This document shows, in pieces, positions 1-21,688 of a stretch of 32,934 nucleotides of DNA. Made by a program: the position numbers and the translations under genes. This DNA comes from Pseudomaricurvus alkylphenolicus (lineage in GTDB: Bacteria; Pseudomonadota; Gammaproteobacteria; Pseudomonadales; Cellvibrionaceae): NCBI RefSeq assembly GCF_011683955.1, contig NZ_JAAQPI010000035.1, positions 1 to 32,934 of the forward strand, read 5' to 3'. The first letter of the stretch is position 1. Every line of letters starts with the position of its first letter. The notes beneath the pieces were generated by a model. That model was not told the DNA's origin. It saw only the letters and a list, made by a program, of their open reading frames with translations, and did no database searches.

Positions 1-65
1 GCCTTGACCGGAAAACACCGGATGAGGTTTACTTCAATACAACGCCGCTTTCCCTGGTGGCTTAA
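1..65 (+). CDS. IS3-family transposase (OrfB/integrase core), C-terminal fragment
   Basis: Reading from base 3, the plus strand encodes about 20 residues ending in TPDEVYFNTTPLSLVA and then TAA. The TPDEVYF signature is typical of the extreme C-terminus of IS3-group DDE transposases (rve domain), which catalyse cut-and-copy transposition of the element. The rest of the protein lies beyond the left edge of the window, so group and functionality cannot be judged. Confidence rests on this short signature and on the interrupted gene next to it. Confidence 0.65.
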   Translation, partial: LDRKTPDEVYFNTTPLSLVA

Positions 66-5641: not shown

Positions 5642-7843
5642 TTAGTGCTTGACAGTGACCTTCACCCCGAAAGTACGTGGTGCGTTGACTGAGCCGGCCA
5701 CATCGGGAAAACCCGGGGTAGAGAAGAAAGACGTCGACATCCAACCAAATGACTCCTCCTCGGTCAGGTTTTTACCGTAGAGTTCAAGGCTCCAGAATTC
5801 GTCCGCTGAATCAAAACGTATGTTGGCATTAACCGTATGATAGGACCCTTCGGTGACCACATCGTCCTCGAAAACGTTGTAGCGGGTTTCATCGGTCCAG
5901 GCGTAATCGCCGCTGAAGGTCAGCGTACCGGCGTCAGCCACATTCATGCTGTATTGCGCCGCCAAACTGAACGTCATCTCCGGGGCATAGGGCATCTGAT
6001 TACCGGAAACGTCCACCAGGGAGCCGTCATAGTCCAGCGCATTTTCGAAATCATCGTACTCACCCTGGGTATAGGTGAAACTCGAAGTCAGCATCAAGTT
6101 CTCTGACGGGCGAACAGACAGATCCGCTTCAATTCCATACACGGTAGCCGTTGCCGCATTTTGCACACTGGATAAGCTGGCGGAAGAGGCATCAAACACC
6201 AGTACCTGCAGGTCTTCAATATCATTGTAGAAGGCTGCCAGGTTTAGCGTCACGCGGCCACCCATAAGCGTGGATTTAACGCCGGTTTCATAGGCCAGGA
6301 TCAACTCTTCGTCATAGGCTGAGCCATCACCATTGAAGGAGCCACTTTTGAAGCCGGTCGATACGGTGCCGTAAAGCATCACATCTTCGTTAATGAAATA
6401 GTCGATACCCAGTTTAGGATCGATGGAACTCCAGTCTTCATCAGCGGTAACCGCCGAAGGAATAGTGACAAACCCAAGGCCAGGATCAAAAGCCGTGGTT
6501 AATGAGTTGGTATCAATTTCCGCCTCTTCGTAACTGTAGCGCAAGCCCAGATTGATATTCAGGTTATCGCTCAGCATGTACTTCACGTTGGTAAATGCTG
6601 AATAGGCCGTACGCTCATCCAAAGTATCGGAGATAATGCTCATGCCTAACCCCGCAACGTCAACCAAACTGGTACCGTCACGTTCACTGTCAAAGTAATA
6701 GAGCCCCATCAGCCATTCGGTCTTGTCGCCTTTACCGATTAATTGCAGTTCTTGCGTAAAGACCTGTTTATCATCTTCAGCATTCATACCACCTATGGGG
6801 GCTTCCGTGGTATCCAAATCGGTAATCCACAGGCCTTCCCGCTCCCGATAACCGGTTATCGATTTAAGCAGCAGGTTTTCGCTCAGATCTTTTTCCAGCG
6901 TCAGCGACAGGCCTGTGAACTCTTCTTTGATCCGCTCATCCACATCGGTACTGATGGTATAAAAGTCACTGTAGACTTGCCCCCCCAGCAGATGACCCAC
7001 ATTGGTATCGGTGGCGGGACGGTAGTTGGGTGAATAATCCTGATCCAGGTAGTCCATCTTTAAGGTGGCATTCAAGCTATTACTGATGTCAAAGGTCAGG
7101 GTCGCATTGGCTACCAGTGTGTCCTCATCCATACCGTCATCGGCGGTAGGACTCTCGTTGTCAATGTAACCGTCATGGGAACGCTTCTGAATGGCCAGGC
7201 GACCACCCACTTTCTCAGACAGGGGGCCGCTGATCATGCCCGTGAATTCCTGGGCATTGTAGTCACCTGCGCCAATACTGGCTTTGTACTCCAGCTCATC
7301 ACCGGGATTTTGGGTAATGATATTGATGGCACCGGAGGTGGAGTTGCGGCCATAGAGTGTACCCTGGGGACCGCGTAACACCTCTACCCGCTCGACATCC
7401 AGAAAACCAGCGAGCCAGTTGCCGCTGTCCTCAACCACGACGCCATCAAAATGCACCGCCACGTTACCCAAACCGTTGAAGTCTGCCTGGGTGCCCATGC
7501 CACGCATCACCAGGGTGGTTGCCGGCCCGTTGACGGCAATATCCAGCCCCGGCGTAAACATTTCCAGGTCGCGGATATTAACAATGCCCTTCTGTGCCAG
7601 CGCGTCCTCGGTGAACGCCGTGATTGCAATGGGGGTATCCTGAATACTGGTTGAAGACATCTTAGTGGCGGTAACTATTATCTCCTCAAGCAGGAAGCCC
7701 AGATCTTCTTCCGCCTGAGCTCCTGGCACCATGGCACCGGACATCGCCAGGCTACCTGTCAACGCCAGCATCGAAAACGATGCTTTGTTTTTTTTGTGAC
7801 TCACTTTCTTATCACACACCATAGATGTTATAGGTTTACTCAT
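5642..7843 (-). CDS. TonB-dependent outer-membrane receptor, full length
   Basis: 733-residue receptor for energised uptake across the outer membrane. A signal sequence with a long basic n-region ends near AQA-EED (about residue 45). Then come the TonB-box-like LLEEIIVTATKM, a plug domain with VERVEVLRGPQGTLYGRNS at about residues 152-170, and a 22-strand-type barrel closing with RTFGVKVTVKH. Length and architecture match FyuA/CirA-like and SusC-unrelated TBDRs of Cellvibrionales and sphingomonads, which often import siderophores, terpenoids or aromatic molecules. GGGAG precedes the ATG. It is terminated by a hairpin at 5573-5603 and appears to be under the same palindromic operator as the ferredoxin-P450 operon, suggesting that it imports the substrate of that pathway. 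Confidence 0.95.
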   Translation of the reverse strand: MSKPITSMVCDKKVSHKKNKASFSMLALTGSLAMSGAMVPGAQAEEDLGFLLEEIIVTATKMSSTSIQDTPIAITAFTEDALAQKGIVNIRDLEMFTPGLDIAVNGPATTLVMRGMGTQADFNGLGNVAVHFDGVVVEDSGNWLAGFLDVERVEVLRGPQGTLYGRNSTSGAINIITQNPGDELEYKASIGAGDYNAQEFTGMISGPLSEKVGGRLAIQKRSHDGYIDNESPTADDGMDEDTLVANATLTFDISNSLNATLKMDYLDQDYSPNYRPATDTNVGHLLGGQVYSDFYTISTDVDERIKEEFTGLSLTLEKDLSENLLLKSITGYREREGLWITDLDTTEAPIGGMNAEDDKQVFTQELQLIGKGDKTEWLMGLYYFDSERDGTSLVDVAGLGMSIISDTLDERTAYSAFTNVKYMLSDNLNINLGLRYSYEEAEIDTNSLTTAFDPGLGFVTIPSAVTADEDWSSIDPKLGIDYFINEDVMLYGTVSTGFKSGSFNGDGSAYDEELILAYETGVKSTLMGGRVTLNLAAFYNDIEDLQVLVFDASSASLSSVQNAATATVYGIEADLSVRPSENLMLTSSFTYTQGEYDDFENALDYDGSLVDVSGNQMPYAPEMTFSLAAQYSMNVADAGTLTFSGDYAWTDETRYNVFEDDVVTEGSYHTVNANIRFDSADEFWSLELYGKNLTEEESFGWMSTSFFSTPGFPDVAGSVNAPRTFGVKVTVKH

Positions 7844-7944: not shown

Positions 7945-7974
7945 ATCTTATGATAAAATTATCGATAATTTCAA
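7945..7974 (-). promoter_or_regulatory. Receptor promoter with ATTATCGATAAT operator
   Basis: Minus-strand TTGAAA (7974-7969) and TAAGAT (7950-7945) are separated by 18 bp. The perfect 12-bp palindrome ATTATCGATAAT occupies 7958-7969 in the spacer, and a half-like TTATGATAA follows at 7948-7956. The same palindrome occurs twice in the promoter of the ferredoxin-P450 operon. It is a candidate operator of the GntR regulator at 12942. The promoter lies about 100 bp upstream of the receptor ATG. Confidence 0.6.
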
Positions 7975-8086
7975 CAAGCAAAATATCACTACCAAATAGT
8001 ACTTTATGCGTTTCACCTATATACGCAGTTCCCTCCAGGGCAAACGTCCTTATTTACCCGCATACCACTCCATTTATTACTTAAAA

Positions 8087-9337
8087 CTATAAAAAACTAC
8101 TCGAGTATTCTGAAATCAGCTGGCCATTTTGCACAATACCCGCCAACGCACCTTCGTCCTGGGCAAACAGGCTGATATCTTCCAGGGGGTTGCCATTCAA
8201 GAGCAGCAGATCCGCACAGGCACCCGGAGCAATGACACCCAGTTCACCTTCCTGACCGAGAATACGGGCATTGATGGATGTCGCCTGCATCAATACCTCC
8301 GCCGGTGAATACACCTGTGCGCGCAATTCAAATTCCAGGCATTGATGACGCTCCAAATCCCCTAACAGGTCGGTGCCGAAGCCCACGGTAACACCGGCGT
8401 CTTTCATGTTTTGCAAACCGCTGTGCATGACATCCACCACCTTGCGCAATTTGTCCATAGACACCTGCGGGTAGCCCAGGGCTTCACCTTCGCGCAACAG
8501 CGCGGTGGCAATGGCCAGTGTAGGCACGATATTGGTGCCCTTCTGCGCCGCCAGCTGTGCCGTCTGTGGTGAGATCATGGTGCCGTGTTCGATACAGTGC
8601 ACCCCCAGCTCAATGGCCCGGCGGATGGCATTATCCGGGTGAATGTGCGCAGTACAGTAAGTACCGTAGCGATCCACCTCGTCGACAATCGCCAACACCT
8701 CGTCATCGCTGAACTGGATGGCTTCCAGGGGACTGGAGGTACTGGACACACCACCGGACGCAGCGAATTTGATAAAGCTGCCACCGCGACGCAAATTGTC
8801 GCGCACGGCGCGGCGCACCTGGTCCACCCCGTCTACGGTGATGGTCATATGACCGGCATAGGTGCAGCCACAGGTCCAACAGCCCCCGTCCTCGTGCTCG
8901 TGGACCGCACGCACATCACCGTGGCCACCGGTCTGGCTGATAATCTTGCCGCAATAGATTAATCGCGGCCCTTTCACCAGCCCCTGCTCCAGCGCCTGGG
9001 CCAAGCCTATGTCTGCACCACCGCAATCGCGCACGGTGGTGAAGCCACGGGCGAGCATATTCTCCAGCCGCTGGTTGGCGTGGTGAGCAATCAGGGTGAC
9101 CGGTTTGCGGTCGTTGTTAAGCAGATTAATATCGGCGGCGTAAGCGTGTATGTGGGCATCGATCAGGCCCGGCATCAACACGCGGCCACCGGCGTCGATC
9201 ACTTTGGCTTCAGCGGGCAGCGGCTCACCGACAGGCAACAGCTGGGTGATACGATCCCCCTCCACGACCACGTTCACGTCATCTCGCAGTTGCGGTTGCA
9301 GGCCGTCAAATACACGGCTATTGGTAAATATCATCAT
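8087..9337 (-). CDS. Cytoplasmic amidohydrolase (imidazolonepropionase-like), complete
   Basis: 416-residue amidohydrolase without a signal peptide. Metal-site residues can be followed through the whole TIM barrel: H62 and H64 in LIDAHIHAY, K190 in SFIKFAASGG, H231/H233 in TAHIHPD, H251 in IEHGT and D323 in GFGTDLL. QTGGHGD (residues about 135-141) and a Cys cluster C153/C156/C158 before VDGVDQVRR are familiar in the Xaa-Arg/Lys/Pro-dipeptidase and carbamate-hydrolase branch of the family. Last gene of the ferredoxin-P450-MDR-cupin operon, 63 bp after the cupin. Two adjacent ATGs (9337, 9334) are possible starts. Expected reaction: hydrolysis of an amide or carbamate bond in the pathway substrate; substrate unknown. 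Confidence 0.9.
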   Translation of the reverse strand: MMIFTNSRVFDGLQPQLRDDVNVVVEGDRITQLLPVGEPLPAEAKVIDAGGRVLMPGLIDAHIHAYAADINLLNNDRKPVTLIAHHANQRLENMLARGFTTVRDCGGADIGLAQALEQGLVKGPRLIYCGKIISQTGGHGDVRAVHEHEDGGCWTCGCTYAGHMTITVDGVDQVRRAVRDNLRRGGSFIKFAASGGVSSTSSPLEAIQFSDDEVLAIVDEVDRYGTYCTAHIHPDNAIRRAIELGVHCIEHGTMISPQTAQLAAQKGTNIVPTLAIATALLREGEALGYPQVSMDKLRKVVDVMHSGLQNMKDAGVTVGFGTDLLGDLERHQCLEFELRAQVYSPAEVLMQATSINARILGQEGELGVIAPGACADLLLLNGNPLEDISLFAQDEGALAGIVQNGQLISEYSSSFL

Positions 9338-9400
9338 CGCAGGCTTGCCCCTGGTAATACAAAATAAATACTGTCAAGAATGCAACGCATATTCGTTACA

Positions 9401-9964
9401 CTATTCAAACTCCAGCCCCACTTTTTCGCGGAAGAACTTGAGATAGTCGGCGTCTTTTTCCGAAATCTGTTCGGCGGTTTTCTTCGGAAATAAAATGTCT
9501 TTACGATCGTGAACACCACCACTGATGATCACCTGCAAGACACCTTCTTCGTCGCTGACATTGCGGAAGGCCCGGTTGACCTGCGGCGGCACCGAAATGG
9601 TATCGAATTCCCCCAGCACCACACTGTGCTCGCCTTCGTCACCCCAGAAAAATTCAAAACGGCCTTTCATTACCGTGAAAGTTTCGTGGGTTTTGTGATG
9701 AGAATGTAGAGTCGGCCCGGTTCCCGCGGGGCAAATTGCATAGGTGATGGTAATACCCGCGGCGCCCACTATGGGGGCGTCGCTGCCAAAGGGCGAGTCT
9801 GGATCCTCACCCAGGGTGATCACGGGTTTGAGTTTGCGCGAGTAAATCAGGTCCATCACATCCTGCGGCACTTCAGGATTCTTTTGGGTTTCCAGTACCT
9901 GCAGTTCATCAAAGCGGGCGACCCGCTTTGCCATTTCTTCCGGGGTTGGGGTTATGGTTGCCAT
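9401..9964 (-). CDS. Cupin-domain protein
   Basis: 187-residue single-cupin protein, predicted cytoplasmic. Cupin motif 1 is intact around residues 83-101: GPTLHSHHKTHETFTVMKG, giving H87, H89 and E94 as metal ligands. In motif 2 (SVPPQVNRAFRN, about 124-135) the usual His is replaced by Arg or Phe, so one of the four standard ligands is missing. That could leave a three-ligand metal site, or mark a non-catalytic binding protein. GAGG precedes the ATG. It lies between the MDR oxidoreductase and the amidohydrolase in the same orientation, with a repeat-containing 109-bp gap upstream. Role could be isomerase, dioxygenase or ligand sensor; not decidable here. Confidence 0.8.
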   Translation of the reverse strand: MATITPTPEEMAKRVARFDELQVLETQKNPEVPQDVMDLIYSRKLKPVITLGEDPDSPFGSDAPIVGAAGITITYAICPAGTGPTLHSHHKTHETFTVMKGRFEFFWGDEGEHSVVLGEFDTISVPPQVNRAFRNVSDEEGVLQVIISGGVHDRKDILFPKKTAEQISEKDADYLKFFREKVGLEFE

Positions 9965-9980
9965 AATGTCCTCTTGCTCT

Positions 9981-10050
9981 TTAGTTAACAGCTAACAGTA
10001 CACAGCTAACAGTGAAAGCCTGTTTATCCGATCCTTAGCTGTTAGCTTTT
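9981..10050 (-). repeat. Small repeat cluster forming a hairpin
   Basis: Two direct copies of GCTAACAG (9991-9998 and in AGCTAACAG at 10004-10012) are followed by the inverted copy CTGTTAGCT (10039-10047), so the transcript can form a stem of about 9 bp. Its character resembles the GCTTACAG repeats at 29461-29530. It lies inside the operon between the MDR gene and the cupin gene and could affect mRNA processing. Confidence 0.5.
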
Positions 10051-10073
10051 AAGCGTTTTCAGATACGAAATAA

Positions 10074-11099
10074 TTAGGGAATCACCACAATCTTGCCAAT
10101 ATGCTTGCCGTTTGCGAGATCCTGATGAGCCTCGACAATCTCATCCAGTTCGAAGGTTTTTGTAATCAGCGGTTTTAATGCACCAACGGAGACGCCGTAC
10201 TCCAGAAAGTCCATGGCTTCATCCATCGCCACGTCATTTCGGGGCAGGTTCATGGCCTGACTGCCGGAGTAGCCGTAGATGGTAAAACCCTTGATGGTGA
10301 GATACTTGGGCGCCATCTGGTAAATAGAGTGTGTTGCCTCGGCAGTGCCCAAAGCACCGTAGTGAATAATACGGGCGCGCCAGCCACACATTTCGCTGAG
10401 CGCCTGACAGCAATCCCCCATCACCGGGTCCAGAACCACATCCACACCTTTGCCGGTAATGGCCATGACTTGATCGACGATGTCATCGCCCCAGACCAGC
10501 ACATGATCAAAACCCAGCTCTTTTAAGTGCTCGGCTTTGGCCGGGTTACGCACTACGCCAATAACCCGAGCACCCGCTAACCTGGCAATCTGGCAGGCTG
10601 CCATGGAGGTGGTGGCGGCGGCCGCATTGAGCAACACCCACTCGCCCGCTTTCACTTGCGCCTCTTTAATTAATGCAAAATACATGGGCACAAACGCCAA
10701 CGAAAAGCCGGCCCCCTCCAGGTCGGAAAAACCGGTGGGAGTTTTAATGAGGGAGAATTCCGGCAGCAGCGCATATTCACCGTAAATAGGGTAACGGTTG
10801 ATAGACATGGAAGAGAGTGAGCTGGCGCGATCCCCCACTTTCCAGCGAGTAACGCCTTCACCAACCGCAATGACTTCGCCACAGACTTCAGTGCCCAAGC
10901 CGGAGGGAAACTCCGGTTTTTCCAGATAGGTGCCAGAGCGATACATGGCATCGCCCTGGGTCATGCCAATACCGAGCACCTTAATCGCCACTTCACCAGC
11001 TTGCGGTTCCCGTAGCGAAGCGGTTTCCAGCTTCAACACTTCGGGTCCACCGGTCTCGTGAAGGCGAACTATTTTATAGCTATCGACCAAACTCATCAT
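10074..11099 (-). CDS. Zinc-independent MDR-family oxidoreductase (quinone-reductase-like)
   Basis: 341-residue medium-chain dehydrogenase/reductase. The N-terminal GroES-like domain is seen in GGPEVLKLETASL..PQAGEVAIKVLGIG and GLGTEVCGEVIAVGEGV (about residues 13-85). The Rossmann half begins near LLNAAAATTSMAACQIARLAGARVIGVVRN (about 155-185). The Cys residues that bind structural and catalytic zinc in alcohol dehydrogenases are absent, pointing to the NADPH quinone-reductase/enoyl-reductase branch. The usual AAxGGVG loop is replaced by AAAATTSMA. It starts 9 bp after the P450 stop, so co-transcription and probably translational coupling are likely. It may reduce or oxidise a product of the P450 step; inference. 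Confidence 0.88.
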   Translation of the reverse strand: MMSLVDSYKIVRLHETGGPEVLKLETASLREPQAGEVAIKVLGIGMTQGDAMYRSGTYLEKPEFPSGLGTEVCGEVIAVGEGVTRWKVGDRASSLSSMSINRYPIYGEYALLPEFSLIKTPTGFSDLEGAGFSLAFVPMYFALIKEAQVKAGEWVLLNAAAATTSMAACQIARLAGARVIGVVRNPAKAEHLKELGFDHVLVWGDDIVDQVMAITGKGVDVVLDPVMGDCCQALSEMCGWRARIIHYGALGTAEATHSIYQMAPKYLTIKGFTIYGYSGSQAMNLPRNDVAMDEAMDFLEYGVSVGALKPLITKTFELDEIVEAHQDLANGKHIGKIVVIP

Positions 11100-11108
11100 C
11101 TTTACTCA

Positions 11109-12311
11109 CTAAGAGCTTAATTTCAGGTGGTAGTAATCAACACCGGTCAGAATGCCGTTGCCCATACTGCGGAATGAACCCGCACCGCGTGTCTCTTCAA
11201 TGGTGCTGGTCGCCTCCAGCAGTCGCTTGAACGCCATTCGCACTTCCATACGCGCCAGCACATTGCCGATACACATATGGATACCACTACCGAATGCCAG
11301 ATGACGATTGGGCTTGCGGGTAATATCAAAGGTTTCCGGGTTTTCAATAACGTCCGGATCAAGACTGGCCGAGCCATTCCAAAGCGCCAGGGACTCGCCC
11401 TTGTATATCTTCACACCACGGATTTCCATATCTTCGCCAGCGATACGATCCTGCTTGCGAATGGTACCGCGCATGCGCAGCATCTCTTCCACCGCACCGT
11501 CAATCAGGTCCGGATTGTCGCGCAACATCTGCATCTGCTGCGGGTGACGAATCAGCTCCTGCATGCCGTTGGCCATTAAATTCATGGTGGTTTCAAAACC
11601 GGCGCCCAGCAACAGAATACATAGCCCGGTCAAGTGCCTCGGCTCATCAATCTGGGTGGCAATCTCATTGAGCATATTTTGCCTGGGGTTTCTTACGCGC
11701 TCTTCGAGGTGTTTATTGAAGTAGTCCGTCAAGACGGTAATGGCCGTACCCAATTGCGCCTCGATATCTGGCCTTTGTCGTTTCCAGAACACCGCCTGGC
11801 CATCATTTTTGGCCAGGTTCTGTGTCATTTCGAACATTAACGGCCAGTCTTTCTCCGGTATATCACAGATATGACAGATGGTGCCGAGAGAAACTCGCAT
11901 GGCAAAGGTGCGCAAAAAATCGACCTCGCCTTTATCCACTGTGTCGGCGATAGCCTGGTCAATCTGCTCCTCAACAATGGCTTCCATTTTATGCACCGCA
12001 CTGGGCAAAAACAGCGGCGCCACAATATCGCGGTAGGTGGTGTGCAAGGGGGGATCATTGCCAATCAGGATAGACGCATCACCCAACGCCTTTTTGTTGT
12101 ACTCCTCACTGCGCTGGCTGGAAAAGGTTTTCCAATCGCGCAGGGCCGCACGAATATCGTCGTTGCGGAACAGCGATACCACCGGCATCAGTGTGCCCTG
12201 GTGGCGATACACCGGGTGATTCTCGCGCATGCGCTTAAACTCTGCAAAGGCATTGCGCTCAAAATAATCGGAGAGCGGATCAAACTCGTGTTCTATTGGA
12301 TCGGACGACAT
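11109..12311 (-). CDS. Cytochrome P450 monooxygenase
   Basis: Soluble bacterial P450 of 400 residues. Visible motifs: I-helix oxygen-binding LLGAGFETT (residues 235-242, with Glu instead of the common Asp), ExxR at E276-R279, and the heme loop HLAFGSGIHMCIG with proximal Cys347. The ATG at 12311 is chosen because AAGGAG lies just upstream; a TTG at 12332 would add only seven residues. It starts 24 bp after the ferredoxin stop. Bacterial class I P450s receive electrons from a 2Fe-2S ferredoxin, so the upstream gene is the likely partner. Expected to hydroxylate or demethylate a hydrophobic substrate, perhaps a terpenoid or aromatic compound; the sequence alone does not assign a CYP family. Confidence 0.95.
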   Translation of the reverse strand: MSSDPIEHEFDPLSDYFERNAFAEFKRMRENHPVYRHQGTLMPVVSLFRNDDIRAALRDWKTFSSQRSEEYNKKALGDASILIGNDPPLHTTYRDIVAPLFLPSAVHKMEAIVEEQIDQAIADTVDKGEVDFLRTFAMRVSLGTICHICDIPEKDWPLMFEMTQNLAKNDGQAVFWKRQRPDIEAQLGTAITVLTDYFNKHLEERVRNPRQNMLNEIATQIDEPRHLTGLCILLLGAGFETTMNLMANGMQELIRHPQQMQMLRDNPDLIDGAVEEMLRMRGTIRKQDRIAGEDMEIRGVKIYKGESLALWNGSASLDPDVIENPETFDITRKPNRHLAFGSGIHMCIGNVLARMEVRMAFKRLLEATSTIEETRGAGSFRSMGNGILTGVDYYHLKLSS

Positions 12312-12335
12312 ACTCTTGCTCCTTAATGCCAATCA

Positions 12336-12656
12336 TTAAACTTGATGCTCTGGAATGTGCACCACCATTCCATTGAGGCTTTCATCAACCACAATCTGAC
12401 AGGCCAGGCGGGATTTTTCGGTCACATCCATAGCGCCTTGCAGCATGGCATCCTCGGTGTCGCTTTTGGCGGGCACCTTGGCCTGCCACTCCGGCTCCAC
12501 CATCACGTGACAGGTGGCACAAACGCAGGCGCCGCCACACTCCCCCAGAATACCTGGCACCAGGTTATCCACCGCGACATCCATCAAGGTGCGGCCGTCA
12601 TCGGCCTCAACCGTATGTTCCTCGCCGCTGGATTCAATAAATCGAATACTGGTCAT
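12336..12656 (-). CDS. 2Fe-2S ferredoxin (adrenodoxin/putidaredoxin type)
   Basis: 106-residue ferredoxin when started at the ATG at 12656, which has GGAG nine bases upstream; a 9-residue longer form from 12683 is possible but has a weaker context. Cluster ligands follow the vertebrate/putidaredoxin spacing: C40, C46 and C49 in ECGGACVCATC and C86 in RLACQI. This family hands single electrons from a flavoprotein reductase to P450s, and the P450 gene follows directly. First gene of the operon, downstream of a strong predicted promoter with two operator palindromes. No cognate ferredoxin reductase is in the window, so one must be encoded elsewhere. Confidence 0.95.
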   Translation of the reverse strand: MTSIRFIESSGEEHTVEADDGRTLMDVAVDNLVPGILGECGGACVCATCHVMVEPEWQAKVPAKSDTEDAMLQGAMDVTEKSRLACQIVVDESLNGMVVHIPEHQV

Positions 12657-12688
12657 CGTTAAGTTCTCCATCTTTATCGCCATACAAT

Positions 12689-12728
12689 ATTATCGATAAT
12701 TTATATCTCAGATTATCGATAATATCAA
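12689..12728 (-). promoter_or_regulatory. Ferredoxin-P450 operon promoter with two ATTATCGATAAT operators
   Basis: Minus-strand TTGATA (12728-12723), 17-bp spacer, TATAAA (12705-12700): a near-consensus sigma70 promoter. One perfect palindrome ATTATCGATAAT (12712-12723) lies in the spacer and a second (12689-12700) covers the predicted transcription start; their centres are 23 bp apart. A further half-site CGATAAT is at 12729-12735. The layout predicts tight repression by a dimeric regulator, most likely the divergently encoded GntR protein. Confidence 0.7.
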
Positions 12729-12831
12729 CGATAATTAGAGATAAGGAAGGCACACGTAATAACCAAAAATGCAGAAAGCCCACTAACCATTTGATTTTAT
12801 TGACTTTTTAATTTCATAGATTGTCGCTATC

Positions 12832-12843
12832 TTTATCGAAAAT
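12832..12843. promoter_or_regulatory. Degenerate copy of the ATTATCGATAAT operator upstream of gntR-type gene
   Basis: TTTATCGAAAAT matches the 12-bp palindrome at 10 of 12 positions. It lies about 100 bp upstream of the GntR start at 12942, so weak autoregulation is possible. The rest of the 285-bp divergent intergenic region is AT-rich and shows no other clear element. Confidence 0.3.
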
Positions 12844-12941
12844 GTAACAACAAGATCAATTAAAGGTATATCTATAAGCACTGGTTGCGCTAAAATTACC
12901 GCTAATGCTCATTAATAGATGCTGATTAAACAGGAGTCACT

Positions 12942-13634
12942 GTGGCAAAAGTTAGCGCCCTCAAAGATACCGCCCCAAAGGCGTCTCCAAAAACTTCATC
13001 CGTCGACAAGGTGATTGAGCTGTTATTAGACGGTATTCAACGGGGCAAGATAGTACCCGGGCAACGCCTGATCACCTCGGAGTTGTCGAAAGACATGGGA
13101 ACCAGCCTGGCACCGGTGCGCGAAGCGTTTCACCTGTTGGCCGGCCAGGGGCTGCTGGAGCTGCTGCCCAACCGGGGAGCCCGGGTGCGGGAACTCACCA
13201 CCGAGAACCTGCTCGAGGGCGTGCAAATTTTGCAGGTGGTCGGGGGCCTGGCAATTCGTCTGGCCAGTAAAAACAAACCCAACGAAGCCCAGACCAAAGC
13301 ACTGAATAACATCATGGCGCGGATTTACCAGGCGGGAGAAGAACGCGATGCCACGGAGTTTTTCCTGGCTATCTCTGCCTCACACCGCTATATGAACGAC
13401 CTGGCCGGCAATTCCTACCTCAACCCCGTTGTCAGCCGCTTACACCTGGAATATTTCAACAGCCAGCTGGCGACCATCATTCCAGGCAATTGGGACCGCT
13501 ATCTCAGCAATTATCGTGAACTGGGTGCCCTGGTGGCTTCCGGAGACTATAAGAAATTGGAACAAACCCTCGACAAGCATTTTGATTGGGTGATGAGTAT
13601 TCTGCGGGAGAAGATTGAGCAGGAACAAGGTTAA
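12942..13634 (+). CDS. GntR-family regulator, FCD subfamily
   Basis: 230-residue transcription factor. Winged helix-turn-helix at about residues 20-85 (KVIELLLDGIQRGKIVPGQRL, then LAPVREAFHLLAGQGLLELLPNRGARV), followed by the all-helical FCD effector domain with the characteristic His-bearing segment SASHRYMNDLAGN near 145-157 and a second His in DKHFDWV near 217. GTG start preceded by CAGGAG. It is transcribed divergently from the ferredoxin-P450 operon and is the only GntR protein in the window. The ATTATCGATAAT palindromes in that operon's promoter and the TonB-receptor promoter are therefore its probable operators. FCD regulators are usually repressors released by a carboxylate-type ligand. 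Confidence 0.92.
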   Translation: MAKVSALKDTAPKASPKTSSVDKVIELLLDGIQRGKIVPGQRLITSELSKDMGTSLAPVREAFHLLAGQGLLELLPNRGARVRELTTENLLEGVQILQVVGGLAIRLASKNKPNEAQTKALNNIMARIYQAGEERDATEFFLAISASHRYMNDLAGNSYLNPVVSRLHLEYFNSQLATIIPGNWDRYLSNYRELGALVASGDYKKLEQTLDKHFDWVMSILREKIEQEQG

Positions 13635-14524: not shown

Positions 14525-14953
14525 TCAAGTGTCATGCCTTTGCAGAAAGTAATCAATACCCGCCTGGGCACACTCCATATCCTGCGCAGGTGTTCCCGAA
14601 CTCAGGCCTATACCGCCAACCACCTCACCGTCGACCACCACCGGCAAACCACCGCCGACAACACTGAGACGTCCGCCCACTTCAGTATGGATACCAAAGG
14701 CGAGACTGCCAGGCACGCAGGCCTCATTGTATTCATGGGTAGCCTTGCGTGCCGCTGCTGCGGTGTAGGCCTTATCCAGGGCGATAGTCGCACTGGTGAC
14801 TTTACCTCCGTCCATACGGGTAAAGGCAATCGGGGTTCCGGATTCGTCTACGACGGAAATACACATGGGTACGCCGATTTTTTGCTCCTGCTTGCTGGCC
14901 CCTTCGATCAGCAACTGGGCCTCTGCCAGTGACAGCCGGTTAATTGTAATCAT
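14525..14953 (-). CDS. GlcG/HbpS-family heme-degrading-domain protein
   Basis: 142-residue protein starting at the ATG at 14953 with AAAGGG upstream (a 12-residue longer frame from 14989 has no good site). Typical family features: SLAEAQLLIEGA near the start, VDESGTPIAFTRMDGG, SATIALDKAYTAAAAR, GGLPVVVDGEVVGGIGLSS, and QDMECAQAGI near the end. Members bind heme or small cofactors, and many sit in catabolic operons (glycolate, diols, aromatic compounds) without a proven reaction. Last gene of the minus-strand cluster led by gamma-glutamyltransferase, 76 bp after the broken POT transporter. It appears intact. Confidence 0.88.
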   Translation of the reverse strand: MITINRLSLAEAQLLIEGASKQEQKIGVPMCISVVDESGTPIAFTRMDGGKVTSATIALDKAYTAAAARKATHEYNEACVPGSLAFGIHTEVGGRLSVVGGGLPVVVDGEVVGGIGLSSGTPAQDMECAQAGIDYFLQRHDT

Positions 14954-15029
14954 GGTAATGCCCTTTAGACTTGTGTGAATAACCCACACGCAATTGGTTA
15001 AATTTATTGGTGGTCAACGATCAAAAAGG

Positions 15030-16420
15030 TCAGGAACAAAGACCCACACCGCGATAAAAACGCAAAATAAAGCTGTCACCATGGGTTTCATCCCGGTCAT
15101 GCATGTGCTGATACAAAAAGGGTGACAATAAATACAGCATTAAACCAAAACAAATGGCGATGCCGCCAAAGGCAAAAAAAGCAGAGGCATAGGTATCCAG
15201 AGCAGCGCCGGCATCCACCAAGCTGCCATCAGCCCGTTGTGCCACCTGCGTGAATCGCGCCGCCAACTCTCCCGCGACAATGCTGCCGATCGCCAAGGAC
15301 ACAAAATAGGCCCCCATCATCATGCCGAGCACGCGCCTGGGGCAGAGTTTGGTAATCATGCTCATGGAGATTGGCGCCTGGCATAATTCGCCAATGACCA
15401 TCAACACAAATATCATCACAAACCAGAACAGACTAATGCGCATGCCGTCATCACTGAAAGATTGCCCCAGGGAGGGCATCATAAAGGCCAGCCCCACCAG
15501 TACCAGCGACAACGCAAACTTCACCGGGATATTGGGGTTTAAATGGCGTTTGGCCAACCAGAACCACAAAAAGCTCAATACCGGCGCCAGGGTAATCACA
15601 AAAACAGAAGGCAGGCCGTTTAACTGAGACGCGGCAATTTCCACGCCGAACAGATCGCGATCAACCAGTCGGTCAGAGAACAATGTCAGCGAGCCAAACA
15701 TCTGCATGTAAAGGGACCAGAAAATAATCGCAAATACGATCAATGTGGCCACCACCAGCATTCGGTCCCGCTCCAGAGGCTGACAGCGAAAGATCGAGAA
15801 ATACATGACAAACAGCCCCAAACCAGCGGCAAACCACAACAAGGTGCCTGACGCCAGGGCATACACATTCAAAGCCTGCCAGACAAGTACCACCAGCAAG
15901 AGGGCACAACCATAAATAGCCCACTCCCGGGTAATGCCCGGCAGTAGCTTGCGGCGCAGGGCTTCAGGGTTTGGAGGGCTGGTTCTGTCACCCAGGAATT
16001 TCTGGCCGTAGAGAAAGGTGCACATGGCCACCAGCATACCTATGCCCGCGGCGGCAAAGCCGTAACGCATACCAAGCCAGTTGCCCAATCCGCCACAAAC
16101 CAGAGGCCCCAGCGCCCCGCCGATATTGATACCCATATAGAAGGTGGTAAAACCCGAGTCCCGGCGTGCATCTTCGGGCTCATAGAGTGCCCCCACCACC
16201 GTCGATATATTGGCTTTCAAGAAACCAACACCGGCAGCATCCACACCAGGGCACCATAAGCGGCTACGATTTTGTTGCCCTCGGCATCTGACAGCAGATA
16301 GGTTTTGGTCAAGTGCAGGATAAGCAGCGATAACATGCCGTAATAGGCGAACCGCTCCCACATTTCAGTCAAGAAACAAACAAATAACCCCTTGGGGTGC
16401 CCCATAAACGTTGCAGACAT
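15030..16420 (-). pseudogene. POT-family proton/oligopeptide transporter with internal frame-shifting deletion
   Basis: Inner-membrane major-facilitator protein of the proton-dependent oligopeptide group (di/tripeptide uptake). The N-terminal frame starts at 16420 after GGAG and encodes FMGHPKGLFVCFLTEMWERFAYYGM (ExxERFxYYG motif) through YGALVWMLPVL, then stops at 16217. Homology resumes in another frame at GVGFLKANISTVVGALY and continues through the remaining helices to 15030. The stretch normally joining LPVxGG to the GxGxxKANxS helix, about 75-100 residues, is missing. The junction lies at about 16225-16240. A deletion plus frame shift therefore inactivates it. The segment from 16361 to the junction in the downstream frame is out-of-frame translation. 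Confidence 0.85.
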
Positions 16421-16451
16421 GCAGTCATTCTCCAGGCAATTGGTTCACTTC

Positions 16452-17243
16452 TTACAAAAGGGCGCGCACAAACTCGCCGCCTTTCATAATCATCGAGAAG
16501 TTCTCGTCCGGCTTGGTCATGACATGGATATCTTCCAGCGGGTTTTTGTCGATGGCGATAATGTCTGCGAAAGCGCCCGGTGCGATACAACCGACCATAC
16601 CGTCTTTTTTCATGATTTCCGCATTGATGCTGGTGGCAGAACGCAGCTGGTCGATGGGTTTAACGATATCTGCGCGGAATTCAAATTCGCGATTCTGCAC
16701 TTTGCGCAATTCGTTGCGGCAGAATTTGCGTACCTCATCAACACCGTCAACCACTTCGGAGAAAGTCGAGTTGGCGGCGCAACCACAAATATCATCGGCC
16801 GCATCCGATGGACGCATATCGCCGTGACCACCGGTTTGTGACAGGGCCTTGCCGCCATGATAAAAGCGCGGCCCTTCCATTAGCCCCTGGTTAATGGCCA
16901 ACTGCAGGCCAATTTCACCACCGGCGGGGTCACGTACCGTGGTATAGCCGCGATGCAATGTACCCTTTAGCAGCCGCGCGGCGTGAGCCACTTTCATCGG
17001 CATGGTCATGGTGTCGAGCTTGTGCATATTAAAGGTGATGGAGTAAGCATGGAAATGCAGGTCCAACAAGCCCGGCATCACAAACCGCCCGCCCATATCG
17101 ATGACACCGGCATCACTCAGGGATACATCACCGGTTGTGACTTCACGGATCAAGTCGTTCTCGATCACAATGCTGCCGTTTTCAATCAGTTCTTCGTTGC
17201 TGCCATCGAAGATAGTGCAGTTTTTTAAGATATTGATAGTCAT
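16452..17243 (-). pseudogene. Amidohydrolase with large in-frame internal deletion
   Basis: 263-residue open frame related to the complete amidohydrolase at 8087-9337. Matching parts: HxH at H63/H65 (LLDLHFHAY), SQTGGHGDMR, VDGVDEVR, and the C-terminal EFEFRADI..SATSINAEI...APGAFADIIAIDKNPLEDI. The frame jumps from NELRKV (about residue 182) straight to QNREFEF, so about 145 residues present in the relative are absent, including the Lys, both later His ligands and the active-site Asp. The frame is preserved but an active barrel is not possible. The join is near 16690-16703. It belongs to a minus-strand operon with gamma-glutamyltransferase and the POT transporter. Confidence 0.85.
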
Positions 17244-17273
17244 GTCAATTCTCTTTCGCTCCCAGCTGTTAGG

Positions 17274-17546
17274 TCACTGTTTTTCCAAAGACTGCTTTAA
17301 CTCCAGCATCACCTTGTCCAAATACTGCTGCGCGCCTTTTTGGCCGCTGCTTATGTAATTAGCAATTTGCTGCTGAGGGTTAGCCCCCTCGGGTGCAGGA
17401 ATATACAACTGCGTATAGGCGTCGAGACTATATTTAACGCCTGACTCTGTAGAGGTCAGGTAATAGCTGGCATTAACGGTCATCCCTTTGAATGGCGGTG
17501 CCAGGTAGGTAGCAAACAGTGAGAAGCGTTTGTTCTGCTCATCCAT
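17274..17546 (-). pseudogene. Probable 5'-truncated gene, possibly the C-terminal end of an SRPBCC-like protein
   Basis: 90-codon frame between two operon genes. The product (SLFATYLAPPFKGMTVNASYYL.., then IPAPEG and an amphipathic C-terminal helix GAQQYLDKVMLELKQSLEK) reads like the last strands and long C-terminal helix of an SRPBCC/polyketide-cyclase-like fold. This is an impression, not a match. The same frame stays open and plausible (YERIAKITE) upstream of the ATG up to the stop of gamma-glutamyltransferase, and no ribosome site precedes the ATG, so the 5' part seems to have been lost. It could still be a short real gene. Confidence 0.4.
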
Positions 17547-17575
17547 TTCGGTAATTTTTGCGATACGCTCATACT

Positions 17576-19327
17576 TTACAATGCAAATGCCTGGGCACTG
17601 CGCCTTGGGTCACCACAAGCGTGAGCCAGACCACTTTCATCAAAATAGATGCCGTCGAAGGAGCCATTTGACCAATTCCACGGGTTTTGCAACTGGTACT
17701 TAGCATCGTGCTTATTCAGGTAATCGAGCACTGACTTGTCCATATGCCCTTCAACGAAGAAGGCGCCCGGCACCTTTGCCCCCCAGGCACTGCCGAATCG
17801 CGGTTGATGGACGGCCTCTTCAATGTTCATGTCGAAGTCCAGCAGGCTGGTGCTCACTTGTACAATATTTTCTACCAGTCCGACACTCGGCGAACCCGAC
17901 ATCAATACGGGCTTGCCATTTTTAGTAAACAGGTTTGGTCCAATTCGGGCTTTAATCCGCTCGCCGGGTTTGGGAATACCGGAACCGTAATGGGCGGAGG
18001 CGGCACAAATATTAATGCCGTCAACAAACAGGCCGTTGCTCCAGGGCCATGACATACAGGAGTGCAATACGGTGGCTACGTTGCCCTCGGCATCGGTGAC
18101 GGTGAGATGATTGGAACCCGGTGGTGGTGGCGCTACCGTATCCATCTCCGAGGCGAGACTGGCAATGCCCCGTTTACGCAATTCGCTCAAGCGCTCTTCG
18201 GCCAATTCCATCGACATAATACGCTCGATATTGGGGCGATTATTCTGATAGTGCCAACCCATGGCCTGCTCCGTCACCAGGTCGATGGTACGACGCATGG
18301 TCAGCAGGGTTTCACCGGACTGGGACGCGGGGCCCATGGACTTCAGGTCCAACAGCGAAAGTACATTGAAAATCTCACCCAGGAACTGACCACCAAAATC
18401 TGGATAAGGTGCCCCGAAATAATCATACTCGCGATACCGAGTGCGAGCAGCGTCCTGCCACATGGGTTTATAGGCCGCAAAATCTTCCGGCGTCACCCAA
18501 CCGCCGTTTTCCTGCACCAACTTGGAGAATTTTTCGGCAAAAGCACCGTGATAGAAGTAGTCGTTGCCCTCTTCTACCAACCGCTCCAACAGATCCGCCG
18601 CACGCTTTTGATAAAGCTTTTCACCCACGTTGGGAATATTGGTGCCATTGGGCATAAAAATTTCCCGACCGGCTTCGGTGCGGCACAGGTGGCTCATTTC
18701 GGCAAACATTTCCCCCCAGAGGAAGGGGTGAATTTCAAAGCCGTTGCGGGCATAGTCAATGGCCGGCGCCACCAGGCGTTTTTTCGGCAGAGTGCCGTAC
18801 ACCTTCAACGCCTCTTCCACCCCGGCCCAGAACCCGGGTACGGTCACACCGCGACCATCATTCATCATCTCAACGGCGTTTTTGTTCCACTCGTCTTGAT
18901 TCACCGGTAGATTGAGCGGTGCATTGTTACTGCAGTTGAGGTAGCTAACCTTGCCGGTTTTGGCCTCGTAGTAGAGCATGGACCAGACCCCGGTGAGGGT
19001 AGTCATATGGGGCTCAACAACACTTTGCGCGATAGAGGCGGCCACTATGGCATCTACGGCATTACCACCGTCACTCATGACATCCAGCGCCGCCTGAGTG
19101 ACTAATGGGTGAGTTGATACTGCCAGGCCCTTGCGACCGGAAGCCGGCTGTTTGCGACCGAAATCTGCCATGGCGACCAGTTGCTGGCGCTTCTTGTCAC
19201 TCAGTATGCCACCCGCCGTAGGCCTAACGGCACCAGCAGGAGCCGCAGTGGCACAACCCGATAGTCCGGTGGTGGATGCCAGTGCCACTCCCGCCGCCAG
19301 ACTTCCCATAAATTCACGTCTACGCAT
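17576..19327 (-). CDS. Gamma-glutamyltransferase family protein
   Basis: 583-residue Ntn-hydrolase precursor. The N-terminus has both a twin-arginine-like RRREFM start and a lipobox (LSGC, Cys25), so export as a lipoprotein is likely. Family landmarks: HPLVTQAALDVMSDGGNAVDAIVAA near 73-97 and the C-terminal GSPSVG (478-483) of the oxyanion region. At the processing site the usual TTHxSV is SNHLTV (S405 in place of the nucleophilic Thr), followed by the standard TDAEGNVAT. Such enzymes cleave gamma-glutamyl bonds as in glutathione. GGGAG precedes the ATG. First gene of the minus-strand cluster containing the amidohydrolase, POT and HbpS genes, consistent with peptide or conjugate use. Confidence 0.88.
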   Translation of the reverse strand: MRRREFMGSLAAGVALASTTGLSGCATAAPAGAVRPTAGGILSDKKRQQLVAMADFGRKQPASGRKGLAVSTHPLVTQAALDVMSDGGNAVDAIVAASIAQSVVEPHMTTLTGVWSMLYYEAKTGKVSYLNCSNNAPLNLPVNQDEWNKNAVEMMNDGRGVTVPGFWAGVEEALKVYGTLPKKRLVAPAIDYARNGFEIHPFLWGEMFAEMSHLCRTEAGREIFMPNGTNIPNVGEKLYQKRAADLLERLVEEGNDYFYHGAFAEKFSKLVQENGGWVTPEDFAAYKPMWQDAARTRYREYDYFGAPYPDFGGQFLGEIFNVLSLLDLKSMGPASQSGETLLTMRRTIDLVTEQAMGWHYQNNRPNIERIMSMELAEERLSELRKRGIASLASEMDTVAPPPPGSNHLTVTDAEGNVATVLHSCMSWPWSNGLFVDGINICAASAHYGSGIPKPGERIKARIGPNLFTKNGKPVLMSGSPSVGLVENIVQVSTSLLDFDMNIEEAVHQPRFGSAWGAKVPGAFFVEGHMDKSVLDYLNKHDAKYQLQNPWNWSNGSFDGIYFDESGLAHACGDPRRSAQAFAL

Positions 19328-19355
19328 TACATCGCTCCCGCTCTTATAAGCCAGC

Positions 19356-19367
19356 TAGTTTAAACTA
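19356..19367. promoter_or_regulatory. Palindrome upstream of gamma-glutamyltransferase
   Basis: The perfect 12-bp palindrome TAGTTTAAACTA lies about 30 bp upstream of the start codon at 19327, and an inverted repeat AATCA-GT-TGATT follows at about 19375-19386. A half-site AATTGGT is at 19419-19425. Candidate operators; no well-spaced promoter was recognised with them. Confidence 0.35.
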
Positions 19368-19622
19368 ACATTAAATCAGTTGATTGAAAATCTAGCCTAT
19401 CAAAAAAGGGGGTAGATTAATTGGTTGATCCGCACTATTTGGAGGGCAGATGACACTATTCCAGTACAACTGAGCATCAAAAAAACCTCGACGCGAGAAA
19501 GTGCTGATTGCCCACCTAATAGTGTCTATTGGCACAACTTTATCACTCCACATCCATTAGGATATTTACTTACACTTCGCTCCATTACGACGCCAATTAC
19601 GAACAGCAAAAAAAGAGTTATT

Positions 19623-20030
19623 GTGTTAAGGAAATTGCTTAAAAAGCATTACAAAATCGGCCTGATAGGCGGCACTCTCTACGCCTCCTGGGCACTGTGG
19701 CATAACTGGCCCGCGGGCCCGTCCCTGGCCCTGGTGGCGGCAGCCACCCAGTTCGCCCTGAGCTTCTCGCTGGCCGTGACCTTCTCCGCCTATATCCAAT
19801 GGTTATTTGATATTGGCTCTAGCGCGCTCTCGAAGTTTCTCAATGTGGTTGTGGGAACCAACCTCACTGCCCTGGGGTTATTGGTTGGTGTTCACAAAAT
19901 AATGGGCACGGCTGCCATTCTCGTGACCATTGCACCCAATATGGTGATGGCCTTGCTGGGCTCAGTGGCATTCTATTTTCAGGCACAGAGAGCAACGAGA
20001 GAGCTCGAAAACCAAACCCAGGATGGGTAG
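19623..20030 (+). CDS. Small inner-membrane protein of unknown function
   Basis: 136-residue protein if started at the GTG at 19623, which has AAGAG five bases upstream; the open frame extends back to 19425, but those 66 residues look unlike coding sequence. A basic cap (LRKLLKKHYKIG) is followed by about four hydrophobic segments: GLIGGTLYASWALW, LALVAAATQFALSFSLAVTF, LNVVVGTNLTALGLLVGV and AAILVTIAPNMVMALLGSVAFY, and a polar tail. I do not recognise the family. It is a lone plus-strand gene between two minus-strand clusters, ending before the hairpin and bidirectional terminator at 20149-20286. Confidence 0.6.
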   Translation: MLRKLLKKHYKIGLIGGTLYASWALWHNWPAGPSLALVAAATQFALSFSLAVTFSAYIQWLFDIGSSALSKFLNVVVGTNLTALGLLVGVHKIMGTAAILVTIAPNMVMALLGSVAFYFQAQRATRELENQTQDG

Positions 20031-20148
20031 ATTACTACAACCAATAGCAAAAGGTAGACCATGCAGTTTGTGATTCAAATTCGGCGGGTAGTGGAGAGGT
20101 GAACTATACTCGCTCTAATTAAGGGAGTATTCGATAATGTATTAGGAT

Positions 20149-20226
20149 ACTAGAGTTTAGAGCGAACCGAATCAAAAGGGCTGGAATTACCCCGCCTGAC
20201 GGCCTCAGTTCGCTCTAAACTCTAGT
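20149..20226. repeat. Long perfect inverted repeat, intergenic
   Basis: ACTAGAGTTTAGAGCGAAC (20149-20167) is repeated perfectly inverted at 20208-20226 around a 40-bp centre. A 19-bp perfect stem with a 40-nt loop is too open for a simple terminator. There is no T-run. It lies in the 268-bp gap between two convergent genes. It may be a mobile-element relic or a recombination site. Confidence 0.6.
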
Positions 20227-20256
20227 TCTAAAGAATTCAAGAGGTTAACGAAACAT

Positions 20257-20286
20257 AAAAAACCGGTAGAGAGCTGCCGGTTTTTT
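20257..20286. terminator. Bidirectional rho-independent terminator
   Basis: AAAAAACCGG (20257-20266) pairs with CCGGTTTTTT (20277-20286), and the inner bases GTAG/CTGC extend the stem around an AGAG loop. Both strands give a GC stem followed by six T, so it serves the membrane-protein gene on the plus strand and the amidohydrolase ending at 20299 on the minus strand. Confidence 0.9.
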
Positions 20287-20298
20287 GAGAGTAAGTTA

Positions 20299-21627: not shown

Positions 21628-21688
21628 TGCTTCTCTCTCTCGGTAAAACGGTTATGCCACTGACCGCGAACGGCAACGCCCGCGAAAG

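What the first reader, a model, noticed from the sequence alone, without database searches (positions are those of the whole stretch)
7945..12735. One palindrome, ATTATCGATAAT, marks two promoters: a proposed GntR regulon for uptake and P450 catabolism
The exact 12-bp palindrome occurs in the spacer of the TonB-receptor promoter (7958-7969) and twice in the ferredoxin-P450 operon promoter (12712-12723 in the spacer, 12689-12700 at the predicted start). In both the -35/-10 spacing is 17-18 bp, so a bound dimer would exclude RNA polymerase. A 10/12 copy (12832-12843) lies upstream of the adjacent GntR/FCD gene. The palindromes and promoters are read directly; assignment of the GntR protein as binder is inference. 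This would link receptor and enzymes in one substrate-specific system.
Basis: partly seen in the sequence, partly recalled or inferred. Interest (0 to 1): 0.8.

Follow-up and report, generated by a model that had tools for sequence, protein, structure and literature searches.

The report
Shared DNA switch for catabolism genes
A short mirror-image DNA word in front of an outer-membrane uptake gene and a P450 enzyme operon is very probably the docking site of the repressor encoded next door, and one amino acid in that repressor's reading helix may explain why it reads this word and not the usual one.

Summary
In detail: ATTATCGATAAT is at 7958, 12689 and 12712. The 8.88-Mb genome holds one more exact copy, inside a chemoreceptor-like ORF; three in this contig have P about 1e-8. 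In both promoters the palindrome starts on the last base of the -35 hexamer. The GntR assignment is well supported. A scan of 84,980 species genomes for tandem copies found 27 loci; 21 have a GntR gene within 1.5 kb. FadR-subfamily regulators normally read GT/AC boxes with Arg at helix position 38; regulators near the tandem pairs have Gln or His (20 of 20 rows), the window GntR Leu. Among 169 FCD regulators chosen mainly by protein, R38 goes with TTGTNNACAA (18 of 151) and Q/H38 with TTATNNATAA (4 of 7); allowing for relatedness this is not significant. BioR and AphS/BphS have similar sites in print. Most likely: a BphS-like autoregulated repressor controls the TonB receptor and the ferredoxin-P450-dehydrogenase-cupin-amidohydrolase operon until an unknown ligand releases it. 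The kind is known; the operator class and residue switch are the new part. Binding is not shown.

The parts
7958..7969 (.). operator in the TonB-receptor promoter, exact ATTATCGATAAT
   Evidence: begins on the last base of -35 TTGAAA and fills most of the spacer
7945..7974 (-). candidate promoter TTGAAA-18-TAAGAT of the TonB receptor gene
   Evidence: 9 of 12 matches; unproven
5642..7843 (-). TonB-dependent receptor, 733 aa
   Evidence: PF00593 and PF07715; terminator-like hairpin 5604-5582 follows it
12712..12723 (.). operator 1 of the ferredoxin-P450 operon, exact, begins on the last base of the -35 TTGATA
12689..12700 (.). operator 2, exact, begins on the last base of the -10 TATAAA and covers the predicted transcription start
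   Evidence: promoter read by eye
12724..12735 (.). weaker copy (2 mismatches) abutting operator 1, with an intact half-site GATAAT
   Evidence: resembles the additional half-sites described for GntR operators
12832..12843 (.). weak copy (2 mismatches) upstream of gntR
12895..12906 (.). weak copy (2 mismatches) upstream of gntR
12336..12658 (-). 2Fe-2S ferredoxin; the listed ORF extends to 12683, start at 12658 preferred because of a GGAG upstream
   Evidence: PF00111 for the listed ORF; start read by eye
11109..12332 (-). cytochrome P450, 407 aa
   Evidence: PF00067
10074..11099 (-). zinc-type alcohol dehydrogenase/quinone oxidoreductase
   Evidence: PF00107, PF08240; TIGR02824 below its cut-off
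9401..9964 (-). cupin; 57% identical homologue beside a GntR and a TonB receptor in Niveispirillum
8087..9337 (-). amidohydrolase (prolidase-like)
12942..13634 (+). GntR/FCD regulator, 230 aa
   Evidence: PF00392 and PF07729
13107..13109 (+). codon (CTG) of Leu56, equivalent of FadR Arg45 (HTH position 38)

Best explanation
The GntR/FCD protein at 12942-13634 is a ligand-released, autoregulated repressor. As a dimer it binds ATTATCGATAAT at the -35/spacer of the TonB-receptor promoter, and a pair of copies (centres 23 bp apart) over the -35/spacer and start region of the ferredoxin-P450-dehydrogenase-cupin-amidohydrolase promoter, so RNA polymerase is shut out of both. Weaker copies upstream of its own gene give autoregulation. 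It reads TTAT and not the usual TTGT because helix residue 38 (Leu56), normally an Arg that contacts G, is replaced. An unknown substrate or intermediate bound by the FCD domain would release it and switch on uptake and oxidation together. Shown: positions, rarity, promoter phase, association of this palindrome with GntR genes, residue-38 correlation at the level of single sequences. Inferred: binding by this protein, repression, operon structure, autoregulation, induction, ligand, substrate.
For: Rarity and placement. Tandem-palindrome scan: 27 loci; GntR within 1.5 kb in 21, at 3-4 kb in 2, none found within the 5-10 kb looked at on either side in 4. In 18 genomes behind these loci PF07729 matches number 182 in 97.5 Mb, so about 0.7% of places would have one that near by chance; 10 of 18 have a listed PF07729 match that near, 12 of 18 by my GntR HMM, and in two genomes (G1179, G1183) the only PF07729 match sits at the pair. 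Same regulon logic elsewhere: Hyphomonas has the palindrome before GntR, before a TonB receptor (pair) and before a carboxylesterase gene; Roseibium between GntR and TctBAC and before a dehydrogenase operon (pair). Residue 38: Q or H in 20 of 20 HTH rows near the pairs; R in 30 of 31 background rows, the exception (L, L104) being the own-genome GntR with ATTATCGATATT in its divergent gap. Larger set: R38 TTGTNNACAA 18 of 151 (1.0 expected) and TTATNNATAA 2 of 151 (1.9 expected); Q/H38 TTATNNATAA 4 of 7 (0.01 expected) and TGTNNACA 0 of 7. Homologous GntR-TonB divergons: Niveispirillum (R38) has the only TGTCGACA of its 14.65-kb locus there; G030 (Q38) the only TTATNNATAA of its 14-kb locus. 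In print: BioR TTATMKATAA, AphS/BphS AwATATCGATATwT with multiple sites.
Against: No close orthologue was found (best 36% identity), so there is no footprint of this very regulon. Leu38 is represented by two proteins only, both in this genome. With relatedness allowed for, the residue-operator link rests on 2-3 independent pairs and is not significant. The larger set is not wholly blind: L047 and L226 were put in after I had read their gaps; without them Q/H38 is 3 of 6 and R38 2 of 150, P=3e-4. Exceptions: R38 L151 has TTATCGATAA and R38 L044 has TTATGCATAA; Q38 L119 and H38 L221 have no A-type site in 420 bp; K38 L216 has TGTCGACA; most R38 proteins (133 of 151) show no exact TTGTNNACAA either. 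Four of 27 tandem loci have no GntR found nearby, and one of these genomes (G1180) has no PF07729 match at all. The sites upstream of gntR itself are weak, and the promoters are unproven.
Confidence: 0.84

Rival explanations
1. The second Leu38 GntR of the genome (C55, L104, divergent from an MFS transporter) binds these sites, alone or in competition, so the two uptake systems are cross-regulated.
For: It shares Leu38 and has ATTATCGATATT, one mismatch, in its divergent gap.
Against: The window GntR is adjacent and has weak copies upstream of its own gene; one half of the C55 site reads GATATT, not GATAAT.
Confidence: 0.12
2. The GntR acts as an activator at one or both promoters, as reported for BphR1 of strain KF707 and ORF0 of LB400.
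For: GntR-family activators of bph genes are in print (passages).
Against: The palindromes overlap the -35, spacer and predicted start (promoters unproven); the passages tie activation in KF707 to an operator that does not overlap the promoter.
Confidence: 0.1
3. The palindrome is read by an unrelated protein (another regulator family or a methyltransferase) and its closeness to gntR is incidental.
For: Four of 27 tandem loci have no GntR found nearby, and G1180 has no PF07729 match.
Against: 21 of 27 have one within 1.5 kb, against about 0.7% expected from FCD density in 18 of the genomes; the residue-38 correlation.
Confidence: 0.05

Closest known systems
AphS/BphS, GntR repressors of phenol and biphenyl catabolism (PMC6449761 and PMC10282184, passages read)
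   Same: GntR-family repressor of oxygenase-type catabolic genes; even palindrome with TCGA centre (AwATATCGATATwT; AAATmTCGAkATTT) and several sites upstream; in KKS102 operator binding blocks RNA polymerase, and repression holds in the absence of a pathway intermediate
   Different: outer bases of the site differ; targets are biphenyl or phenol pathway genes, no TonB receptor named in the passages read; BphS and AphS helix residue 38 not seen here
BioR, GntR repressor of biotin genes (PMC4494728 sections, PMC4554459 passages)
   Same: site TTATMKATAA includes TTATCGATAA; tandem boxes, and boxes before bioR itself; BioR-like proteins here (next to BioY, L208 and L221) have His at position 38, not Arg
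   Different: controls biotin synthesis and uptake, not catabolism
AlkR, GntR/VanR repressor of alkane monooxygenase AlkB2 (PMC12042122, passages and section 9)
   Same: FCD repressor of a monooxygenase; half-site ATTGTC differs from ATTATC by one base; R45 and R49 on the recognition helix matter for binding
   Different: Arg where the window protein has Leu (position matched by its 4-residue spacing to the second Arg, not by an alignment to AlkR); odd 13-bp palindrome; released by long-chain acyl-CoA

Membership tests
GntR family, FCD (FadR/VanR) subfamily | N-terminal GntR winged helix and C-terminal FCD domain | tested here: met
   PF00392 1.9e-10 and PF07729 1e-10, both over cut-off
GntR family, FadR subfamily, canonical operator | palindrome with TKGT/ACMA boxes | tested here: not met
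   the site has TTAT/ATAA; PMC4494728 names BioR and NanR as non-conforming examples
GntR family, FadR subfamily, canonical helix | Arg at HTH position 38 contacting G | tested here: not met
   Leu56 in the window protein; of the 5 solved homologues aligned (of 12 listed) 4 have Arg and McbR has Ile
AphS/BphS type | several TCGA-centred even palindromes at catabolic promoters beside a GntR gene | tested here: met
   (form and placement of the sites only)
AphS/BphS type | orthology with AphS/BphS and aromatic-pathway targets | not tested
   no AphS or BphS sequence was fetched; the Pfam families of the targets here are different enzymes
AphS/BphS type | repression lifted by a pathway intermediate | not testable with these tools
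   needs an experiment
BioR | linkage to biotin genes | tested here: not met
   no BioY or other biotin family among the Pfam hits of the 29 window ORFs scanned (26 of them with a hit); other window ORFs were not scanned

The most novel reading that the evidence does not exclude
A single recognition-helix position (38, FadR Arg45) acts as an A/G selector for FCD-GntR regulators across phyla: Arg reads TTGT, while Gln, His or Leu read TTAT, and the change has arisen many times (10 changes by parsimony on the tree, many of the non-Arg rows having been chosen by motif). ATTATCGATAAT would be the operator of this second class, and operators could be forecast from protein sequence.
Probability: 0.58. 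Interest if true: 0.65.

Novelty: new variant of a known kind. Interest (0 to 1): 0.52.

Why it matters
It ties an uptake receptor to a P450 pathway of unknown substrate and gives a cheap route to that substrate (find what releases the repressor). More widely, it proposes a one-residue rule by which operators of uncharacterised FCD regulators could be predicted and their regulons found.

Tried and rejected
No orthologous operon could be found: the GntR protein was searched in 145 relatives, 390 genomes of the order, 369 of the class, 398 of the phylum (these draws overlap), the GTDB contigs (nothing confirmed) and plasmids (best 36%). The cupin was found in 1 of 97 genomes, the own one (E up to 1e-25); 41 plasmid records match it, Niveispirillum best at 57%.

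A first converse test on 80 FCD genes held too few Gln/His/Leu proteins to be informative and was enlarged. The phylogenetic pair test lacked power. P450, cupin and amidohydrolase comparisons with solved structures did not point to one substrate. The idea that contig C28 is foreign to the genome is not supported: GC is 0.516 against a median of 0.540 in 41 own-genome loci, and tetranucleotide r=0.90 with them (0.98 between two halves of those). A VanR operator ATTGGATCCAAT was recalled; one search listed one yeast paper with both terms, not read, so it is not used.

In print: searches (TTATCGATAA; 20 of 68 papers listed, listing only; 0 papers; 6 papers, listing only; 6 papers, passages of one read; 2 papers, sections of one read) showed no report of ATTATCGATAAT as a GntR operator or of the residue-38 link. 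The library holds only CC0, CC BY and CC BY-SA papers, and 48 of the 68 were not listed.

Corrected on re-checking: one-mismatch sites outside ORFs are 5, not 6 as first counted; the larger test was not wholly blind (L047, L226); FCD-by-family counts near pairs are 10 of 18, not 12. I lowered two odds slightly for this (0.85 to 0.84, 0.60 to 0.58).
Full report
OBSERVATION. The window is the whole of contig C28 (32,934 bp) of an 8.88-Mb assembly. Only one other exact copy exists in the genome, inside a chemoreceptor-like ORF. Of the 31 one-mismatch copies, 26 lie in ORFs of 90 aa or more picked by script; of the 5 that do not, one (ATTATCGATATT) lies between another GntR/FCD gene and a divergent MFS transporter gene (recounted; families). 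Three exact copies in this contig have a Poisson probability near 1e-8. The 258-bp gap between the listed ferredoxin ORF and gntR holds, besides the two exact copies, three with two mismatches (0.05 expected, P=0.0005); the TonB gap holds none.

PROMOTERS. On the minus strand the two start regions read TTGAA-ATTATCGATAAT-TTTATCATAAGAT and TTGAT-ATTATCGATAAT-CTGAGATATAAATTATCGATAAT (hyphens mine): the palindrome begins on the last base of the -35 hexamer in both, and in the second promoter a further copy begins on the last base of the -10. The scan lists the first and not the second, because of its rule on the -10. Such matches are no commoner in the region than in shuffles, so the promoters remain a reading. 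A terminator-like hairpin follows the TonB gene at 5604-5582 (16 such sites in the region against 11.4 in shuffles).

GENES. Ferredoxin, P450, dehydrogenase, cupin and amidohydrolase lie on one strand with gaps of 3, 9, 109 and 63 bp (listed ORF ends; families); the TonB receptor follows after 243 bp. The divergent gene is GntR with FCD. That the five form one operon is inferred from spacing.

WHO BINDS? I searched 84,980 species genomes for two exact copies 5-30 bp apart, with no reference to any gene: 27 loci. By HMM and tblastn a GntR gene lies within 1.5 kb in 21 (L053-L055, L058, L060-L063, L065, L066, L068-L076, L078, L079), at 3-4 kb in 2 (L056, and L067 with a distant match) and is not found in 4 (L057, L059, L064, L077) within about 9 kb, or to the contig end 5 kb away on one side of L064. 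L064's contig has a Q38 FCD gene 12 kb from the pair. Some loci are near-copies: 7 are Hyphomonas-type and 6 Obscuribacterales/Melainabacteria; by my grouping from the record titles the 21 are about 8 lineages in Alpha- and Betaproteobacteria, Cyanobacteria, Melainabacteria, Bacillales and Phycisphaerae. For 18 of the 27 loci I searched the whole genome: PF07729 matches are 182 in 97.5 Mb. Of the 18, 10 have a listed match within 1.5 kb of the pair; two Hyphomonas regulators are found by my HMM, and the one scanned falls below that family's cut-off, which makes 12. In Hyphomonas the sites mark GntR, a TonB receptor and an esterase gene; in Roseibium, the gap of GntR and TctBAC and a dehydrogenase operon. 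L057 has the pair just upstream of a TonB-receptor-like ORF but no GntR found.

WHY THIS SEQUENCE? A published survey of the FadR subfamily gives TKGT/ACMA boxes as the consensus, lists Arg at HTH position 38 (FadR Arg45) as a base-specific contact to G, and sets BioR (TTATMKATAA) aside as non-conforming (PMC4494728; abstract and sections 5, 10, 13, 16 and 17 read). Its section 13 names Gln-A and Leu-A among known preferences, but also His-G, which does not fit the His rows here. In 20 distinct HTH rows of GntRs near the tandem pairs (two of them from the loci at 3-4 kb) the residue is Q (17) or H (3); in 31 background rows it is R (30) or L (1), the L being the own-genome regulator named above (identical and gappy rows dropped). 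The window protein has Leu56 there. The background came from hits similar to the window protein and two wider searches, plus that one chosen by motif.

LARGER TEST. From 172 loci I kept 169 rows (gappy HTHs, short or repeated upstream regions dropped). 170 loci were chosen by protein; L047 and L226 I added after reading their gaps. Expectations are from mononucleotide shuffles. R38 (151): TTGTNNACAA in 18 (1.0 expected), TGTCGACA in 18 (0.9), TTATNNATAA in 2 (1.9). Q/H38 (7): TTATNNATAA in 4 (0.01), TATCGATA in 3 (0.02), TGTNNACA in 0. Other residues (11): TTATNNATAA in 0, TGTCGACA in 1. Fisher P=2e-5 for TTATNNATAA per sequence; 3e-4 without L047 and L226. Against: L151 (R38) has TTATCGATAA and L044 (R38) TTATGCATAA; L119 (Q) and L221 (H) have no A-type site. 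On a tree without the helix columns there are 10 changes between R and Q/H/L, but the independent-pair tests rest on 3 pairs (all rows) or 2 (without motif-chosen rows) on supported branches and cannot reach significance. L208 and L221 lie beside BioY, L208 also beside a radical-SAM gene, and so are BioR-like.

HOMOLOGOUS CLUSTERS. The nearest homologue of the regulator on plasmids (36%, Niveispirillum) is divergent from a cupin (57%) and a TonB receptor (33% over 716 aligned positions). It has R38, and the only TGTCGACA of the 14.65-kb locus is in that divergent gap. In G030 a Q38 homologue (31%) is divergent from a TonB receptor, and the only TTATNNATAA of 14 kb is in that gap; the gap is AT-rich. 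A second G030 homologue, R38, has ATTGCATGCAAT upstream.

COMPARISON. AphS/BphS sites (AwATATCGATATwT) and the link of BphS repression to a pathway intermediate (PMC6449761 and PMC10282184, passages) are the closest mechanism. BioR is the closest site. AlkR (PMC12042122, passages and section 9) shows an FCD repressor of a monooxygenase with ATTGTC half-sites.

VERDICT. An ordinary kind of circuit (repressor, receptor, enzymes) with a non-canonical operator that now has a likely reader and a possible reason. Direct binding, repression and ligand are not shown.

Noticed in passing
G000:C55:96800-101800 (L104 2518): A second Leu38 GntR/FCD gene, divergent from an MFS transporter gene, has ATTATCGATATT in the gap; cross-talk with the window regulon is possible.
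   Followed up: partly
window 3-59: The left contig end is open in frame and, by eye, the peptide resembles the end of an IS3-type transposase; the assembly may break at a mobile element. No family search was made.
   Followed up: no
L058, L060, L063, L071, L078, L092: Obscuribacterales/Melainabacteria regulators sit beside two or three palindromes; in two of these genomes (G1179, G1183) it is the only PF07729 match.
   Followed up: partly
window 14525-22999: A run of genes with HbpS-like, POT transporter, amidohydrolase, gamma-glutamyltranspeptidase and Nramp-like domains; one amidohydrolase ORF (16452-17243) matches separate ends of the family profile and may be incomplete.
   Followed up: no
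L057 2680-3981: Tandem palindromes before short TonB-receptor-like ORFs with no GntR found within about 9 kb.
   Followed up: no
L046 1251: R38 homologue of the regulator in G030 with the palindrome ATTGCATGCAAT upstream.
   Followed up: no
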